Source of the DNA: Streptomyces sp. NBC_00539
GTDB lineage: Bacteria > Actinomycetota > Actinomycetes > Streptomycetales > Streptomycetaceae
DNA length: 64,000 nucleotides
Direction of reading: 5' to 3'
NCBI RefSeq assembly: GCF_036346105.1
Contig: NZ_CP107811.1
Location: forward strand, 5,103,501 to 5,167,500
Positions 55,803 through 60,769 of the stretch are shown here, piece after piece. Position 1 is the first letter of the stretch; each line of letters starts with the position of its first letter. The position numbers and the translations under genes are program-made. Under the pieces are notes generated by a model. It was not told the DNA's origin. It ran no database searches and worked only from the letters and a program-made list of their open reading frames with translations.

Positions 55803-56196
55803 CGCCGGCCTCCGGCCGTCGGTGGCCGGGGCGCGGCCCCTCGTACGGTCCGTACAACGGTGTGCGGCACTCGACACAGCGCCTGCCATGGCTCCTTCCG
55901 GATGCCGTGCTCGCGCCGCTCGGCCGGGGACGGCCTTGCGGGCTTCGCCCGGCTGCGCCGGCCTCCGGCCGTCGGTGGCCGGGGCGCGGCCCCTCGTACG
56001 GTCCGTACAACGGTGTGCGGCACTCGACACAGCGCCTGCCATGGCTCCTTCCGGATGCCGTGCTCGCGCCGCTCGGCCGGGGACGGCCTTGCGGGCTTCG
56101 CCCGGCTGCGCCGGCCTCCGGCCGTCGGTGGCCGGGGCGCGGCCCCTCGTACGGTCCGTACAACGGTGTGCGGCACTCGACACAGCGCCCGCCATG
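55803..56196. repeat. 153-bp tandem repeat, about 2.6 copies
   Basis: Unit 1 is 55803-55955, unit 2 is 55956-56108, and a partial third is 56109-56196. The copies are identical by eye except one T/C near 56190. Each unit contains CGCCGGCCTCCGG at its start, the palindrome GTACGG-T-CCGTAC, and GC-rich hairpins. 153 is a multiple of 3, so several frames stay open, but none has a good RBS. The whole 55777-56241 gap holds no credible gene. Confidence 0.9.
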
Positions 56197-56241: not shown

Positions 56242-56754
56242 TCAGAGTTTGAGCAGGGCTCCGCGCCAGGTCCAGCCCGCGCCGAGGACCGCCTTCTGCA
56301 GGGGGGTCTTCATCTGCCGCGTGTCGAAGGAGAACTCCTCGACCATGCGGCGGCGGCCGTCGGGGCCCCGTTCGATCGTCCACCGCTTGGACACCGTGGT
56401 CACCTGCCCGCGGCTGTACTCGCCCGACTTGGCAAGCCTGGGGGTGTCCCCGATCCAGGTGATCTCCAGCTGTTCGTCCAGGGCCCGCACCTCGTGCCTG
56501 CCGGGGACCAGACGCATCCTGGTCTTGAGGGTCCGGTCCAGCCGGGACCGCAGGAAGAAGGAGTGCCAGGCCGGCTCCAGGACCCGCCACTCCGCCACCA
56601 GGTCCGCCTTCTCCGCGGGCCTCGCGTTCCGCACGACGTACGGCTTGTCCGGGCCGTTGACCGCGAGCAGCGCCTCCCGTACCTCCGGGGCGGACAGCGG
56701 CGTCGCACCACTGTCCGGGTGCAGGGTGCCGGTGAACCTGTCCATCAGCCCCAT
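56242..56754 (-). CDS. Hypothetical protein of the WXG-like module
   Basis: A 170-aa soluble protein with no membrane segment or signal. The N-terminal ~60 residues include a conserved-looking APEVREALLAVNGPDKPYVVRNA. The middle is rich in beta structure (RMRLVPGRHEVRALDEQLEITWIG). The tail ends KTPLQKAVLGAGWTWRGALLKL. No known domain recognised. It is 2 nt from the end of the DUF1795-like gene. Candidate immunity or adaptor protein for the neighbouring WXG-like protein, by position only. Confidence 0.78.
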   Translation of the reverse strand: MGLMDRFTGTLHPDSGATPLSAPEVREALLAVNGPDKPYVVRNARPAEKADLVAEWRVLEPAWHSFFLRSRLDRTLKTRMRLVPGRHEVRALDEQLEITWIGDTPRLAKSGEYSRGQVTTVSKRWTIERGPDGRRRMVEEFSFDTRQMKTPLQKAVLGAGWTWRGALLKL

Positions 56755-56756
56755 CG

Positions 56757-57266
56757 TCAGGCCCCCGTCCCGGCGTTCGGCCCGGGGTCCGGGCGCACCG
56801 TGCGCAGGAACTCCTGGAAGTCCGGGAGGACGTCGTCGTGCTGTGCGGCGGTGGCGGTCAGGATCGAGCGGACCAGCGCCCGCTTGTGCGGGTCCGTGGC
56901 GTCGGTGAGGGCCATGTAGACCTGGGACTGCACGAGCTCGCGGCGGACGCCGGCGACGACGACCGTCACGTCCAGCCGCTGCGTCAGGCCCGGCGCAGCC
57001 GCGGAGCCGACGTCGTGGCGGGTGGCCACCACCACGGACTCGGCGGCCCCGAGTACCTGCTGCACCGAGGCGTCGGCGAGCTCCTCCATGGTCGTCTCTT
57101 CCCGCAGGAAGCCACCGTCAAGGGTGATGTTGGCGGTGAACCCTTCGTCCGGCTGCGGATACAGCGCGATGAAGGCCACCTCCGACGCGCCGACCTCGTC
57201 CGGCGGTGCGGCCCGCCAGCCCTCCGGCAGGCTGAATTCGATCGGCACGGGCAGTGTCGTGGGCAT
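56757..57266 (-). CDS. Cytosolic DUF1795/LpqN-like protein
   Basis: A 169-aa protein with the Mog1/PsbP-like pattern: PVPIEFSLPEGWRAAPPDEVG ... FIALYPQPDEGFTANITLDGG ... ELADASVQQVLGAA ... QRLDVTVVVAGVRRELVQSQVYM, ending DVLPDFQEFLRTV. Related DUF1795 proteins (EagR) act as effector chaperones beside type VI effectors, while LpqN proteins are lipoproteins. No signal peptide is present here, so it is probably cytosolic. Family assignment is by pattern and needs a profile search. Confidence 0.75.
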   Translation of the reverse strand: MPTTLPVPIEFSLPEGWRAAPPDEVGASEVAFIALYPQPDEGFTANITLDGGFLREETTMEELADASVQQVLGAAESVVVATRHDVGSAAAPGLTQRLDVTVVVAGVRRELVQSQVYMALTDATDPHKRALVRSILTATAAQHDDVLPDFQEFLRTVRPDPGPNAGTGA

Positions 57267-57302
57267 CGGTGGCCTTCTTTCCGTCTGGACGGGAAACGTA
57301 CA

Positions 57303-58652
57303 TCAGTCGAACCAGCCGCCGACGGTGTGCTTGACCGACCCGGCGGTGTCACCGATCGCGTCGGCCGCGTCACCGAACGCGTCGCTGACCTTGCCGGGGT
57401 CGACCGTGAACTCGCCGCCGACGGCACCGCCGATGCCGAGTGCGCCACCGACCTTGCCGCCGAAGTGGTACTTGCCGTCGTCGCCCTTGCCGAAGTCCCA
57501 CTTCAGCTCGGCACCCGCCGCGCCGTACCAGCCCTCCGCCGTCGCGCCGGCGCCGATCCCGGCGACCTCGCCGCCCCCGGCCACGCTCGCCTTCGCCCCG
57601 GCGAACGCCTGGAACTTGCCGTTGAAGCCGTCCTTGCCGAGCGAGGCACCGGCCGAGCCCTCGGCGCCGGCGAAGACCTCGGTCCGCGCGTACCCTTTGA
57701 CGGGGCCGTACTCGGCGGTCCCGCCGACCAGTTCGCGGATGCCGGCGGACGCCTCGAGCTTGACGCTCGCACCCGAGTTGCTGAACCCGTAGTTCCCGGT
57801 GGCCCTTGCGCCCCCGTAGACGTCATAGACGTCGGTGAACTTGACCCCGCCCTTGGTGGCCTCTCCCGCCTGGCTCAGGTGGAACAGGTCGCCGTACAGC
57901 TTGAACGAGCCCTCCTTGCCGTTCTTGACGCCGGTGAGTTTGAAGCCCGCGTCCGGGCCGGTGATCTTGAGACCGTCGTCGTCCTTCTTGCCGTCGGGTG
58001 CGTCGGCCTCGGCCTTCTTCGCTTCCTGCGCGGCCTTCACGGCCTTCGTCAGATCACCCTCGGCGCCCGCGTTGAACCCGGTGAGCGACATGTCGGCGCC
58101 CTTGCCCAGGGCGTCCTTGTTGCTGTCGACGACGGAGGCCTCAAGGGCCAGCTTGACGTTCTGGTCGAGCTCGGAGACGGCTTTGACCCGGTCGTCGATG
58201 TGCTGCTGCCACTTGGTGACGGCCGTGCGGATGGAGGCCTCGCCGTCGGGGTCGTGGTGGTAGGCGCTGCGCTCGGAGGCAGTGAGCTTGTCCCAGTCGA
58301 AGGCGACGTGCCCCTGTTCGGAGACGGTCATGCCGGCGGCTATCGCATCGGCGCGGGCGCTTTCGACCTTGTGCTTGAGGTCGGTGAACTTCTCGTGCGC
58401 GTCCCGCAGCAGGCTTCCGATCGCCTTGGCCTGGATCTGCGCGGCCGAGTACTCGTAGCGGGTGCCCGCGAAACCCGACTGCGCGGTACCGGAGCTGACA
58501 CCGTTCCAGGTGTTGCCCATGGTGATCTTCTGTACGGAGTCGCCGTAGCGCGTCTCGACCTTGCCGAGCTCGCCCGCCATCGCCTCCCACTTGCCGGCGG
58601 CGGTCGTCAGCAGGTCCAGGTTCGTGGACATGACCTCGTGGTATTTGAGCAC
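57303..58652 (-). CDS. WXG-motif (ESX-like) protein with Gly-rich C-terminal domain
   Basis: A 449-aa protein. Residues 1-~110 form a WXG100-like helical hairpin with WNG at 49-51 (MGNTWNGVSS). A helical linker with LDQNVKLALEASVVDS follows to ~220. Residues ~225-430 are Gly/Ala-rich with alternating hydrophobic residues (AFAGAKASVAGGGEVAGIG, KYHFGGKVGGALGIGGAVGG), suggesting beta-rich or membrane-active structure. The C-terminus is DAFGDAADAIGDTAG. A GTG with AGGGGG 5 nt upstream. No classical signal peptide, consistent with type VII secretion. Function unknown. Confidence 0.82.
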   Translation of the reverse strand: MLKYHEVMSTNLDLLTTAAGKWEAMAGELGKVETRYGDSVQKITMGNTWNGVSSGTAQSGFAGTRYEYSAAQIQAKAIGSLLRDAHEKFTDLKHKVESARADAIAAGMTVSEQGHVAFDWDKLTASERSAYHHDPDGEASIRTAVTKWQQHIDDRVKAVSELDQNVKLALEASVVDSNKDALGKGADMSLTGFNAGAEGDLTKAVKAAQEAKKAEADAPDGKKDDDGLKITGPDAGFKLTGVKNGKEGSFKLYGDLFHLSQAGEATKGGVKFTDVYDVYGGARATGNYGFSNSGASVKLEASAGIRELVGGTAEYGPVKGYARTEVFAGAEGSAGASLGKDGFNGKFQAFAGAKASVAGGGEVAGIGAGATAEGWYGAAGAELKWDFGKGDDGKYHFGGKVGGALGIGGAVGGEFTVDPGKVSDAFGDAADAIGDTAGSVKHTVGGWFD

Positions 58653-58661
58653 GGCAGCCCC

Positions 58662-59129
58662 CTACAGACCGTTCAGCTTCGACTGCGTCGTGAACTGGTT
58701 GCGGATCCCGGTGTCGTTGCCCGTGAAGAGCCCCGACGCCCCGCGCAGTGCGCCCTTCTCGCCGTCCAGACGGGCCATCAGGTTCTTCACCTGCTGGTCC
58801 CACGTGTCCGCCACCTTTTTCAGGCCCGCGGCGGTCTCCCACCCGTCGAATCCCTTGTGCGCGGCGGTGGTGGCCTCGTCCGCGTGCTCCGCGGCCTTCT
58901 TCGTGTTCGGCTGCAACTCGTTCTCGATCGTGCCCGCCGCCGCCTTCTTGTCCGCCGGCGACGAGGCGAAGTCGGCGGGTCCCTTGCCCGGGGCGAACGG
59001 CCCGTACACGGGCGGGGACGACGGCCCCGGACCCGATGGTTCCGGTGGCACGTGATTCAGCCGCATGCCCACCTGCTGGTCCGCGCCACCCGTGGCCGAA
59101 CCCCACTCCTGATCGAAATCCCCTGCCAT
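58662..59129 (-). CDS. WXG/ESX-like partner protein
   Basis: A 155-aa protein. The N-terminal half is Pro/Gly-rich (PPEPSGPGPSSPPVYG). The C-terminal half is helical with a FDGWETAAGLKKVADTWDQQVKNL stretch reminiscent of WXG-family helix 2. GGGGAGG lies 8 nt upstream of the ATG. Its stop is 9 nt from the start of the larger WXG protein, so the two are probably coexpressed as a pair. It lacks a clear W-x-G turn, so family membership is tentative. Confidence 0.75.
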   Translation of the reverse strand: MAGDFDQEWGSATGGADQQVGMRLNHVPPEPSGPGPSSPPVYGPFAPGKGPADFASSPADKKAAAGTIENELQPNTKKAAEHADEATTAAHKGFDGWETAAGLKKVADTWDQQVKNLMARLDGEKGALRGASGLFTGNDTGIRNQFTTQSKLNGL

Positions 59130-59473
59130 TCTTTGGCCTCCCCGTCGGCAAGAACCCGATCATATGCACGGCTCCTGTGGGTGCGAACAAGCCACCCGCC
59201 CGTCCAACTCGCGCCGGTCCGGGCAAAAGTGGTGCGCCGCAGGCCGCGGGCTCGCCGACGCGGGTCGCTCGTGCGGGTGACCGCCGCCAGGGCCGCCGGA
59301 AAGGGGCCGCCGGGGCCGCGGCGCAGGCAGGCCGGGCCGTACCGGGGGAGTGGCGGGGGACGTGCGCCGGCCGGCCGGAGCGCTGCTCGCACCCGGCCGG
59401 GGTGTAGGCCGGACGGACCAACTGCACCGGACACCCCAGTTCAGCGCGGCTGCTTCTGGTAACTGTGGGCCCC
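59130..59473. other. Gene-free divergent intergenic region
   Basis: This 344-bp stretch between the WXG-like operon (minus) and the DUF1906 gene (plus) is expected to hold both promoters. I could not identify convincing -35/-10 boxes or repeats. A minus-strand open frame here (59057-59434) has an Arg/Pro-rich translation and looks like chance. Confidence 0.5.
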
Positions 59474-60769
59474 ATGCCGTCCCGAATGATGCTGGCCACT
59501 TTGCTGGGTGCCGCCCTGCTCGCGCCCGCCCCGCCCGCCACCGCCGACGGGCGGACCGTCGAGTACCACGGGATGCGCCTCACCGTCCCCGCGGACTGGC
59601 GCGTCGTCGACCTCGACCGGAATCCCGCAGCCTGCCTGCGCCTCGACCTCCCCACCCTCTACCTCGGGCACGCCGGCGGGCAGGGCGAGTGCACCGGCCG
59701 CGCCGTACGCAGCCGCGCCGACACCCTGCACCTGGAACCCCTCGACGGCGCCCCCGAGCGCGCCGACATCCCCACCCTGCGCACCGACGGGACCCGGCTG
59801 CCGTCGACCCCGCCCGGCGACAGCCGTGAGGTGCGCTACGCCCTGCGGTACCCCGGGGTGATGGCCACCCTGTCGTACGGGAACAGCCCCGACGCCGTAC
59901 GGGAACTCCTGGCCCGGGCCCGTACGGTCACCCCCGCCACCGCCGGCCCCCCGGCGGCCGACCCCGTGAGCCCCGCCGTGGCCACGCGCCCCCTCACCGG
60001 CCAGCCGGCCTTCACCGGCACCGGCTTCGACGCCTGCACCGCCCCCACCCAGAGCGACATGGACACCTGGCGGGCCGACTCCCCCTTCCGCGCGGTCGGC
60101 ATCTACATCGGCGGCCGCGCCCGGGCCTGCGCCCAGCCCCGGCTGACCTCCGGCTGGATCCGCCGTCAGGCCGATGCGGGCTGGCACCTGATGCCGATCT
60201 GGGTCGGCCCGCAGCCCTGGGACAGCTCCAGCACCGGCCTGTCCACCGACCCCTCCGAGGCCGGCGACGAGGGCGTCGAAGCCGCAGAGGGCGCGGTCGA
60301 GGCGGCCCGCTCGCTGGGCCTCGGGGCGAACACGGTGCTCTACAACGACCTGGAGCACTACACCGACCGCGACACCTGGGACGCCCCGGTCGTCGCCTAC
60401 CTCACCGCCTGGACGGCACGGCTGCACGCACTGGGTTACCGCGCGGCGGCCTACGTGCACGCCGCGTCCGGGGTCCCGGCGCTGAGCGCCCACTACCACC
60501 AGGCCCCGCAGGACATGCCGGACGTGCTGTGGGTGGCCCGCTGGAACCTCTCCGCCTCGGTCACGGACGCCGACATGGGCCTGCCCGCCGGAGGCGCCCA
60601 GTGGCCCGGCCGGCGCCGCGCCCACCAGTTCCGCGGAGGACACGACGCCACGTTCGGCGACGTCACGATCAACATCGACCGCAGCCGGCTCGACGTCGAC
60701 CCGGCCGCCTTCCCCCCGCTGCGGCGCGGCCGGGACCTGATCCCGTTCACCACGAAGGGCACCGCCTGA
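59474..60769 (+). CDS. Exported DUF1906 glycoside hydrolase-like protein
   Basis: A 431-aa protein. The N-terminal signal peptide is MLATLLGAALLAPAPPATA. Residues ~30-160 form a separate, small N-domain. The C-terminal DUF1906 TIM-barrel (rv2525c-like) spans ~185-425: GTGFDACTAPTQSDMDTW, AVGIYIGGRARACAQPRLTSGWI, WHLMPIWVGPQPW, VLYNDLEHYT, and WVARWNLSASV. The family resembles GH25 lysozymes and may act on cell wall, though catalysis is unproven. Start ATG at 59474, without a strong SD; nearby ATGs at 59486/59489 are possible. Confidence 0.87.
   Translation: MPSRMMLATLLGAALLAPAPPATADGRTVEYHGMRLTVPADWRVVDLDRNPAACLRLDLPTLYLGHAGGQGECTGRAVRSRADTLHLEPLDGAPERADIPTLRTDGTRLPSTPPGDSREVRYALRYPGVMATLSYGNSPDAVRELLARARTVTPATAGPPAADPVSPAVATRPLTGQPAFTGTGFDACTAPTQSDMDTWRADSPFRAVGIYIGGRARACAQPRLTSGWIRRQADAGWHLMPIWVGPQPWDSSSTGLSTDPSEAGDEGVEAAEGAVEAARSLGLGANTVLYNDLEHYTDRDTWDAPVVAYLTAWTARLHALGYRAAAYVHAASGVPALSAHYHQAPQDMPDVLWVARWNLSASVTDADMGLPAGGAQWPGRRRAHQFRGGHDATFGDVTINIDRSRLDVDPAAFPPLRRGRDLIPFTTKGTA

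What the first reader, a model, noticed from the sequence alone, without database searches (positions are those of the whole stretch)
56242..59129. Four-gene WXG-like module with a DUF1795/EagR-like chaperone candidate
Seen: two small-gap-linked WXG-type proteins (one 449 aa with W49-N50-G51 and a Gly-rich C-terminal domain), followed by a cytosolic protein with a Mog1/PsbP pattern and an unknown protein, all on one strand. Known: WXG100 proteins are type VII substrates, and DUF1795 proteins are chaperones for type VI effectors. Inference: a type VII effector paired with a DUF1795-like chaperone/adaptor, an association I do not recall being described. No secretion machinery is encoded nearby, so it would use a locus elsewhere.
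Basis: partly seen in the sequence, partly recalled or inferred. Interest (0 to 1): 0.72.

Follow-up and report, generated by a model that had tools for sequence, protein, structure and literature searches.

The report
Streptomyces type VII cargo with chaperone
A four-gene Streptomyces cluster encodes a protein that is probably exported by the type VII secretion system, together with a small partner protein that accompanies its tail domain in nearly every genome where either was found and probably acts as its dedicated chaperone.

Summary
The four genes are real and conserved. The 449-aa protein is a probable type VII (ESX) substrate with a W49-x-G51 head and a ~195-aa Gly/Ala-rich C-terminal domain (CTD). 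In relatives the same CTD sits behind three head types: WXG-like, Pfam T7SS_signal (best 1e-38) and EspA/EspE (2e-24). The 169-aa protein (p169) is the CTD's partner. CTD and p169 occur in the same 32 of 150 Streptomyces genomes, always adjacent (33 of 33 pairs); in the same 3 of 396 phylum-wide genomes; and in 79 of 80 named loci. The window holds no machinery, but in 8 of 32 genomes the pair lies within 40 kb of eccC, and in six loci tested it sits among ESX genes.

p169 does not pass as DUF1795/DcrB. Its nearest family is LpqN (profile-profile P 5e-5, probability 67%), recalled as the same Mog1/PsbP fold. Best reading: p169 is a dedicated chaperone of the CTD (inferred, ~0.6). p170 and the 155-aa protein go with the WXG-like head; p170 is often orphan and could be immunity or an adaptor. 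What is new is a constant cargo-partner pair on swapped heads, the reverse of polymorphic toxins.

The parts
58662..59129 (-). p155, small Esx/EspC-like candidate partner upstream of the cargo; no W-x-G
   Evidence: ORF; no WXG or YxxxD/E; p155-like gene upstream on the same strand in 16 of 21 loci with the WXG-like head and 0 of 12 with the T7SS_signal head, and in 65 of 72 and 0 of 5 named loci. No family hit; the Esx-like role is inferred from position.
57303..58652 (-). wxg449, probable type VII substrate: WXG-like head plus Gly/Ala-rich C-terminal domain
   Evidence: W49-x-G51; PF06013 E 0.13, below cut-off; 22 of 26 homologues have W-x-G in the head; 8 of 26 have PF21725 T7SS_signal heads
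57303..57899 (-). CTD, conserved C-terminal cargo domain (~195 aa, 24% Gly, 16% Ala)
   Evidence: Alignment A3; 32 of 150 genus genomes; composition
56757..57266 (-). p169, cytosolic obligate partner of the CTD, LpqN/PsbP-like; candidate chaperone
   Evidence: 33 of 33 full copies lie 33-137 bp from a CTD; hhalign with LpqN P 5.4e-5; no signal peptide or TM by hydropathy
56242..56754 (-). p170, accessory protein of the WXG-like-head version; candidate immunity protein or second adaptor
   Evidence: Same strand downstream in 20 of 21 WXG-like-head loci and 0 of 12 T7SS_signal-head loci; 23 of 47 full-length copies have no CTD within 5 kb on their contig

Best explanation
The cluster encodes an ESX (T7SSa) substrate with its own escort. 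The helical head of wxg449, probably with p155, carries the export signal. The Gly/Ala-rich CTD is the cargo. p169 is a cytosolic LpqN/PsbP-like protein that binds the CTD before export, keeps it from aggregating or assembling too early, and stays behind when the substrate passes EccC. Shown: conservation, fusion of the CTD to recognised T7SS heads, placement inside ESX loci in relatives, and strict CTD-p169 pairing. Inferred: physical binding, chaperone action, secretion, and what the CTD does outside the cell. p170 is a satellite of the WXG-like-head version and may protect the producer or act as a second adaptor.
For: CTD and p169 occur in the same 32 of 150 genomes and as 33 of 33 adjacent pairs; in the same 3 of 396 genomes of the phylum; and in 79 of 80 named loci, which overlap the first set. 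p169 follows the CTD whichever of three heads precedes it: 21 of 21 WXG-like, 12 of 12 T7SS_signal, 1 of 1 EspA/EspE. Across 18 loci p169 distances track the CTD (r 0.75; partial given the head 0.68) and not the head (partial given the CTD 0.01). Heads: PF21725 5.1e-32 and 1e-38, PF18879 1.9e-24. EccC is over its cut-off in 32 of 32 module genomes; in 8 of 32 the pair lies within 40 kb of it, in 12 it lies farther away on the same contig, and in 12 the two are on different contigs. ESX neighbours by NCBIfam: EccB, mycosin, EccE, EccC or WXG100 proteins in L032, L056, L043/L106, L055, L057 and L059. A full-length p169 without a CTD was seen in 0 of 33 genus copies, whereas p170 is often orphan.
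Against: No structure, binding or secretion evidence. A strict toxin-immunity pair would show the same linkage. The LpqN match is moderate (P 5e-5, one pairwise test). PDB searches with p169 profiles do not support it on their own: the top match is a peptidyl-prolyl isomerase (8zht, 0.086 and 0.0046, no single stretch passing), and 3lyd is second and not significant. No YxxxD/E motif at the usual place in the window's substrate. The Mantel result can be inflated by linkage (p169-p170 gives 0.71) and by saturation of the fast-evolving head. The co-occurrence probability ignores shared ancestry.
Confidence: 0.58

Rival explanations
1. p169 is the cytosolic immunity protein of a toxic CTD; p170 is something else.
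For: Strict one-to-one pairing directly downstream of the CTD is also what toxin-immunity pairs show. T7SS_signal-head operons have no p170 (0 of 12), which leaves p169 as the only constant neighbour that could protect.
Against: Immunity genes often persist as orphans (recalled), but 0 of 33 full p169 copies do so in the genus set, and the one CTD-less p169 in 80 named loci has lost its usual start. The CTD is conserved rather than polymorphic (mean column identity 57%).
Confidence: 0.22
2. p170, with or without the DUF4333 lipoprotein, is the immunity protein and the CTD is a membrane-active toxin (compatible with p169 as chaperone).
For: A p170 without stops stands beside decayed p169 at G000:C2:362588, G000:C1:6719951 and G020:C4:172065. 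23 of 47 full p170 copies are orphans, and L033 has a tandem pair. p170-like proteins near the pair in L104 and L105 have a C-terminal hydrophobic segment, and DUF4333 lipoproteins lie beside them. p170 distances follow p169 (0.71) and the CTD (0.61) more than the head (0.29).
Against: 7 of the 32 CTD genomes have no p170 match at E 1e-5, all with the T7SS_signal head. By presence p170 goes with the head type. The CTD has no TM-grade hydropathy.
Confidence: 0.25
3. The cargo is not a toxin but a secreted structural or envelope protein; p169 is its chaperone (a version of the best explanation).
For: The CTD is conserved with a Gly/Ala-rich alternating pattern, and it is kept while heads are swapped, unlike polymorphic toxins. 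The periodicity is weakly beta-like, 69% of windows against 54% in the first 120 residues.
Against: Patchy distribution, 32 of 150 Streptomyces genomes, fits a conflict function better than housekeeping.
Confidence: 0.3
4. The 449-aa protein is not secreted; the WXG head is a chance or relic feature.
For: Its WXG100 match is below cut-off (E 0.13) and W-x-G is missing in 4 of 26 heads.
Against: The same CTD carries T7SS_signal and EspA/EspE heads and sits in ESX loci in relatives.
Confidence: 0.07

Closest known systems
Mycobacterial EspE/EspF/EspH and EspA/EspC/EspD (ESX-1)
   Same: A long Esp substrate, a small Esx-like partner and a small cytosolic escort. One relative (L105) has an EspA_EspE head on this very CTD (PF18879, 1.9e-24). 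EspH binds EspE and is needed for its secretion (PMC6107294, passages).
   Different: EspH/EspD are described there as YbaB-like. p169 members hit LpqN instead, and no EspD/EspH-type family name appears among their Pfam hits. No direct comparison was made.
Eag (DUF1795) chaperones of T6SS effectors
   Same: A small cytosolic protein encoded next to the effector; the Mog1p/PsbP-like fold is named in a reference title cited in an Eag paper (PMC12881460, passages).
   Different: p169 fails DUF1795 membership. Eags bind N-terminal TM helices (PMC7773334, passages); here the partner domain is C-terminal and has no TM-grade segment.
EspG and EspK chaperones of T7SSa
   Same: Substrate-specific cytosolic chaperones (PMC11217815 and PMC9811218, passages).
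   Different: Those bind the helical tip of the head. p169 follows the CTD across head types. No EspG family hit in 33 members.
LpqN family (PF10738) and its solved structures 6e5f, 6e5d, 4ol4, 3lyd
   Same: Best family hit for p169 members; colinear profile alignment over 129 columns. 3lyd is the second-ranked PDB match of the p169 profiles, not significant, and a significant LpqN-profile match (1.9e-6).
   Different: The family is named a probable lipoprotein; p169 has no signal peptide and is tied to a T7SS substrate.
LXG toxins with partner and immunity proteins (T7SSb), e.g. TelE/TipE
   Same: Helical head, C-terminal effector part and small partner genes; TelE has a C-terminal glycine zipper and is probably pore-forming (PMC10434224, passages).
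   Different: [quoted passage not shown] here the CTD is constant and the head changes.

Membership tests
T7SSa (ESX) substrate | WXG-type helical head or a recognised T7SS signal domain | tested here: met
   W49-x-G51; 22 of 26 homologues have W-x-G; PF21725 in 8 of 26, best 5.1e-32; PF18879 1.9e-24 in L105. The window's own head is below the WXG100 cut-off.
T7SSa (ESX) substrate | YxxxD/E secretion motif on the substrate or its partner | tested here: not met
   None in the window's head or p155; present in one Esx protein each of L056, L032 and L043 (YMEGD, YRGGD, YRGGD) and between residues 32 and 140 of 10 of 26 homologues.
T7SSa (ESX) substrate | Genome encodes, or the locus adjoins, the ESX machinery | tested here: met
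   EccC over cut-off in 32 of 32; EccD match in all 32; within 40 kb in 8 of 32; ESX genes around the pair in six loci.
T7SSa (ESX) substrate | EccC-dependent secretion | not testable with these tools
   Needs a secretome.
DUF1795/DcrB (PF08786), Eag chaperones | Significant match to the family profile | tested here: not met
   p169: no hit at E up to 10; 1 of 33 members at 0.023; hhalign with E. coli DcrB, a single sequence, P 0.045, probability 1.2%.
DUF1795/DcrB (PF08786), Eag chaperones | Client with N-terminal TM helices and prePAAR/PAAR | tested here: not met
   No TM-grade segment in wxg449 (maximum 19-aa hydropathy 0.84). PAAR is not among the 22 Pfam families hit by the 26 members.
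LpqN (PF10738) / Mog1-PsbP-like fold | Profile match over the whole domain | tested here: inconclusive
   7 of 33 members, best 0.0012; hhalign P 4.6e-4, P 5.4e-5 and probability 67% with two distant members added; control pairs P 0.42 and 0.15. That LpqN and DcrB share a fold is recalled.
LpqN (PF10738) / Mog1-PsbP-like fold | Three-dimensional fold | not testable with these tools
   Structure prediction switched off.
EspG chaperones | Family profile match | tested here: not met
   No EspG family among the 8 Pfam families hit by 33 members at E up to 1.
EspD/EspH chaperones | Sequence relation to EspD/EspH | not tested
   Sequences deliberately not fetched; no such family name among the Pfam hits of 33 members.
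Polymorphic toxin | Constant head with varying C-terminal toxin domain | tested here: not met
   Reverse pattern: constant CTD with three head types.
Polymorphic toxin | Dedicated immunity gene | tested here: inconclusive
   p170 is often orphan but absent from T7SS_signal-head operons.

The most novel reading that the evidence does not exclude
A new type of T7SS chaperone: a soluble Mog1/PsbP (LpqN)-like protein that recognises the exported C-terminal cargo rather than the helical head, forming a portable cargo-chaperone cassette that has been attached to at least three different T7SS head domains. The same fold would then serve as substrate chaperone in both type VI (Eag) and type VII secretion.
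Probability: 0.38. Interest if true: 0.8.

Novelty: new variant of a known kind. Interest (0 to 1): 0.6.

Why it matters
What Streptomyces type VII systems export is largely open (recalled). This gives a defined, conserved substrate family, its obligate partner and ESX-linked examples in soil species, so export and chaperone dependence can be tested directly. If p169 binds the cargo end, type VII chaperones are not limited to proteins that hold the helical head. No title or passage that I saw links DUF1795, LpqN or PsbP-like proteins to type VII export as chaperones; these were listings of open-licence PMC papers, and most were not opened (in one search, 4 papers hold both 'DUF1795' and 'type VII secretion', none opened).

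Tried and rejected
Rejected: DUF1795 as a family label. p155 as a WXG protein. 'Machinery always elsewhere'. Polymorphic toxin by variable C-terminus. p170 as a relative of p169 (hhalign P 0.15).

Led nowhere: single-sequence PDB searches with wxg449 and p169; PDB profiles of p170 and the CTD; PF08786 and PF10738 in 21 relatives, 0 of 21 each (for PF10738 no control genome rang either).

Results against the reading: one of 80 named loci has p169 without CTD (L205; its p169 lacks the usual start). p170 follows same-strand in only 51 of 72 named WXG-like-head loci against 20 of 21 unnamed ones; some named loci end close to the gene. The top PDB match of the p169 profiles is an isomerase (8zht), not an LpqN-like chain. 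In each Esx pair tested (L032, L043, L056) one of the two proteins is below the WXG100 cut-off. Rows left out: 7 of 33 CTD genes had no full-length call and are missing from A3 and A4 (26 rows) but are typed. L105 has no gene call there and was read from ORFs. The window is not among the 34 loci. 3 of 22 LpqN places were left out of A5. In one search the profile includes the two outside members, so those two match by construction; they were first found through p169 and by the A3 profile. Only the best 80 of 147 GTDB relatives were examined, and several are the same contigs as in the unnamed set.
Full report
Observation. Four ORFs follow one another on the minus strand at 56242-59129: 155, 449, 169 and 170 aa, with gaps of 9, 36 and 2 bp. 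A simple GC3-based gene caller, run over the whole window, returns the same genes, with a shorter start for the first. The 449-aa protein has W49-N50-G51. The 155-aa protein has no W-x-G. None of the four has a hydropathic segment that looks like a signal peptide or TM helix. Pfam at E up to 10 gives only WXG100 (0.13) for the 449-aa protein and nothing for the other three.

Conservation. p169 has relatives in 32 of 150 genomes of the genus: 33 full copies and 2 fragments. Neighbourhoods of about +-9 kb show the order p155, wxg449, p169, p170 again and again. Aligning 26 cargo proteins shows a surprise. The C-terminal ~195 aa are conserved in all 26, while the N-terminal part is of two unlike kinds: the window's WXG-like head, and a head that Pfam knows as T7SS_signal (PF21725; 8 of 26 members, best 5.1e-32). 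A third kind appears outside the genus. In L105 the CTD stands behind an EspA/EspE head (PF18879, 1.9e-24), and in L104 behind T7SS_signal (1e-38).

The pair. The CTD profile finds 32 of 150 genomes, and they are exactly the genomes with p169. All 33 full p169 copies lie 33-137 bp from a CTD. The naive probability of identical sets is about 10^-32.7, without correction for shared ancestry. In 396 genomes across the phylum, p169 and the CTD are again in the same 3 genomes. In 34 loci with a CTD (the window not counted) p169 lies downstream on the same strand in 34 of 34: 21 with the WXG-like head, 12 with T7SS_signal (11 of them Streptomyces) and 1 with EspA/EspE. A scan of 84,980 species genomes found 147 relatives of p169, of which the best 80 were kept. 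The CTD is upstream in 79 of 80: 72 with the WXG-like head, 5 with T7SS_signal and 2 unassigned, apparently because the frame is broken before the CTD. The exception, L205, has p169 without its usual start. These 80 overlap the unnamed set and are not an independent sample. Sequence distances of p169 follow the CTD (Mantel r 0.75; partial given the head 0.68) rather than the head (0.43; partial given the CTD 0.01) over 18 loci with the WXG-like head, the window among them. The same test gives p169-p170 0.71, CTD-p170 0.61 and head-p170 0.29, so linkage may inflate the first figure and saturation may lower those with the head.

Link to the machinery. EccD is found in 140 of 150 genus genomes, among them all 32 with the pair. 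EccC over its cut-off is in 32 of 32. In the window's genome the nearest EccC is 944 kb away, but in 8 of 32 genomes the pair is within 40 kb of one: 5.3, 9.2, 11.3, 11.6, 18.1, 18.8, 22.8 and 38.2 kb. In 12 it is 404 kb or more away on the same contig, and in 12 the two are on different contigs, so the distance is unknown. Four of the eight have the WXG-like head and four have T7SS_signal. NCBIfam names the neighbours over the curated cut-offs: EccB and mycosin in L032, L055, L056, L057 and L059; EccE in L055 and L056; EccC in L032 and in L106, which continues L043; and one WXG100 protein of each Esx pair tested in L032, L043 and L056, its neighbour being below cut-off (gene lists). In L032 the whole four-gene module lies between the Esx pair and EccC; in L043 the Esx pair lies upstream of the module. 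This is the strongest evidence that the cargo is an ESX substrate.

What p169 is. Single members hit LpqN (PF10738) in 7 of 33 cases, best 0.0012, and DcrB (PF08786, the DUF1795 family) in 1 of 33 at 0.023. An LpqN alignment was made from 19 of 22 listed places. Profile-profile comparison gives P 4.6e-4 and probability 33%, improving to P 5.4e-5 and 67% with an alignment that includes the two distant p169 members. Two control pairs give P 0.42 and 0.15. E. coli DcrB gives P 0.045. The LpqN profile finds LpqN structures and 3lyd (1.9e-6). 3lyd is also the second-ranked, not significant, PDB match of the p169 profiles (0.12 and 0.086); the first is a peptidyl-prolyl isomerase, 8zht (0.086 and 0.0046), with no single stretch passing. 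So p169 is probably LpqN-like. That LpqN, DcrB/Eag, Mog1 and PsbP share one fold is recalled, except that a reference title cited in PMC12881460 names the Mog1p/PsbP-like fold in the Eag context.

p155 and p170. By presence both go with the WXG-like head: p170 is downstream on the same strand in 20 of 21 WXG-like-head loci and 0 of 12 T7SS_signal-head loci (2 of these 12 have it upstream on the other strand); p155-like genes are upstream in 16 of 21 and 0 of 12. Named loci give 51 of 72 and 0 of 5 for p170, and 65 of 72 and 0 of 5 for p155. p170 occurs in 41 of 150 genomes with 47 full copies; 24 lie within 5 kb of a CTD and 23 do not. At three places a p170 without stops stands directly beside a decayed p169. 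Distant p170-like proteins near the pair in L104 and L105 carry a hydrophobic C-terminus (profile scores 13.6 and 22.5 bits). DUF4333 lipoproteins lie near them and near the module in L032, L055, L056, L057 and L059, and beside the orphan p170 of L165. In L176 an orphan p170 lies beside a second cargo-like pair: a 149-aa protein and a 619-aa protein with an alpha/beta-hydrolase domain (PF06259, 8.8e-34), relatives of a pair encoded beside eccC in L043/L106 (41% and 48% identity). Retention without the CTD suggests immunity; absence from T7SS_signal operons argues against it, and the L176 case hints at a role with other cargos. I leave p170 open.

Mechanism. Head and p155 take the protein to EccC; p169 binds the CTD and is not exported; the CTD acts outside. 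Shown: pairing, head swapping and ESX linkage. Inferred: binding, export and function. Chaperone is preferred over immunity for p169 because full p169 copies are not found without the CTD in the genus set (0 of 33), whereas p170 is, and because the CTD is not polymorphic. What the CTD does is unknown; its Gly/Ala-rich pattern (24% G, 16% A) is compatible with a membrane-active or self-assembling domain, but no TM helix is predicted.

Known systems. The nearest working analogue is EspE/EspF/EspH and EspA/EspC/EspD of ESX-1: EspH binds EspE and is required for its export, and is described as YbaB-like (PMC6107294, passages). EspG and EspK hold the helical tip of the substrate (PMC11217815 and PMC9811218, passages). 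Eag chaperones hold N-terminal TM helices of T6SS effectors (PMC7773334, passages), and a PsbP/MOG1-like T6SS adaptor was proposed in PMC3482391 (passages). A 2025 paper describes a T7SS-associated toxin of Amycolatopsis with a predicted targeting factor and a likely immunity gene; the word chaperone does not occur in its main text (PMC12691689, passages). No listing or passage seen joins DUF1795 or LpqN to a T7SS chaperone role; preprints and most subscription papers are not held.

Verdict. A real, conserved T7SSa cargo module with an obligate partner of a probably new chaperone type; the fold and the action of the partner remain to be shown.

Noticed in passing
window 55803-56196: A 153-bp tandem repeat (2.6 copies, 99% matches) lies between gltD and the end of the module. 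In the genome search it is found only here, apart from two ~45-bp partial matches.
   Followed up: partly
window 59465-60769: Divergent gene for an Rv2525c-like glycoside-hydrolase-like protein (PF08924, 1.2e-41), also next to the module in the closest relative L031. Its N-terminal part weakly matches TIGR03931, a type VII-associated family (0.03).
   Followed up: partly
G000:C2:362588-363297 (L063), G000:C1:6719951-6720639 (L107), G000:C1:363112-363564 (L179): The window's genome has three more p170 copies; two stand beside decayed p169 fragments and the third has no p169 match.
   Followed up: partly
L165:8646-9665: An orphan p170 next to a DUF4333 lipoprotein gene (PF14230, 4.9e-18) like those near the module in ESX loci, with no CTD gene called nearby.
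   Followed up: partly
L176:9103-12028 and L043:14108-16369: A second possible type VII cargo pair: a 148/149-aa protein and a 575/619-aa protein with an alpha/beta-hydrolase domain (PF06259), beside eccC in L043/L106 and beside an orphan p170 in L176. The 148-aa protein weakly matches p155 (4e-4).
   Followed up: partly
L033:9315-10288: Two p170 genes in tandem after p169, the second strongly diverged (46% identity to the window's copy).
   Followed up: no
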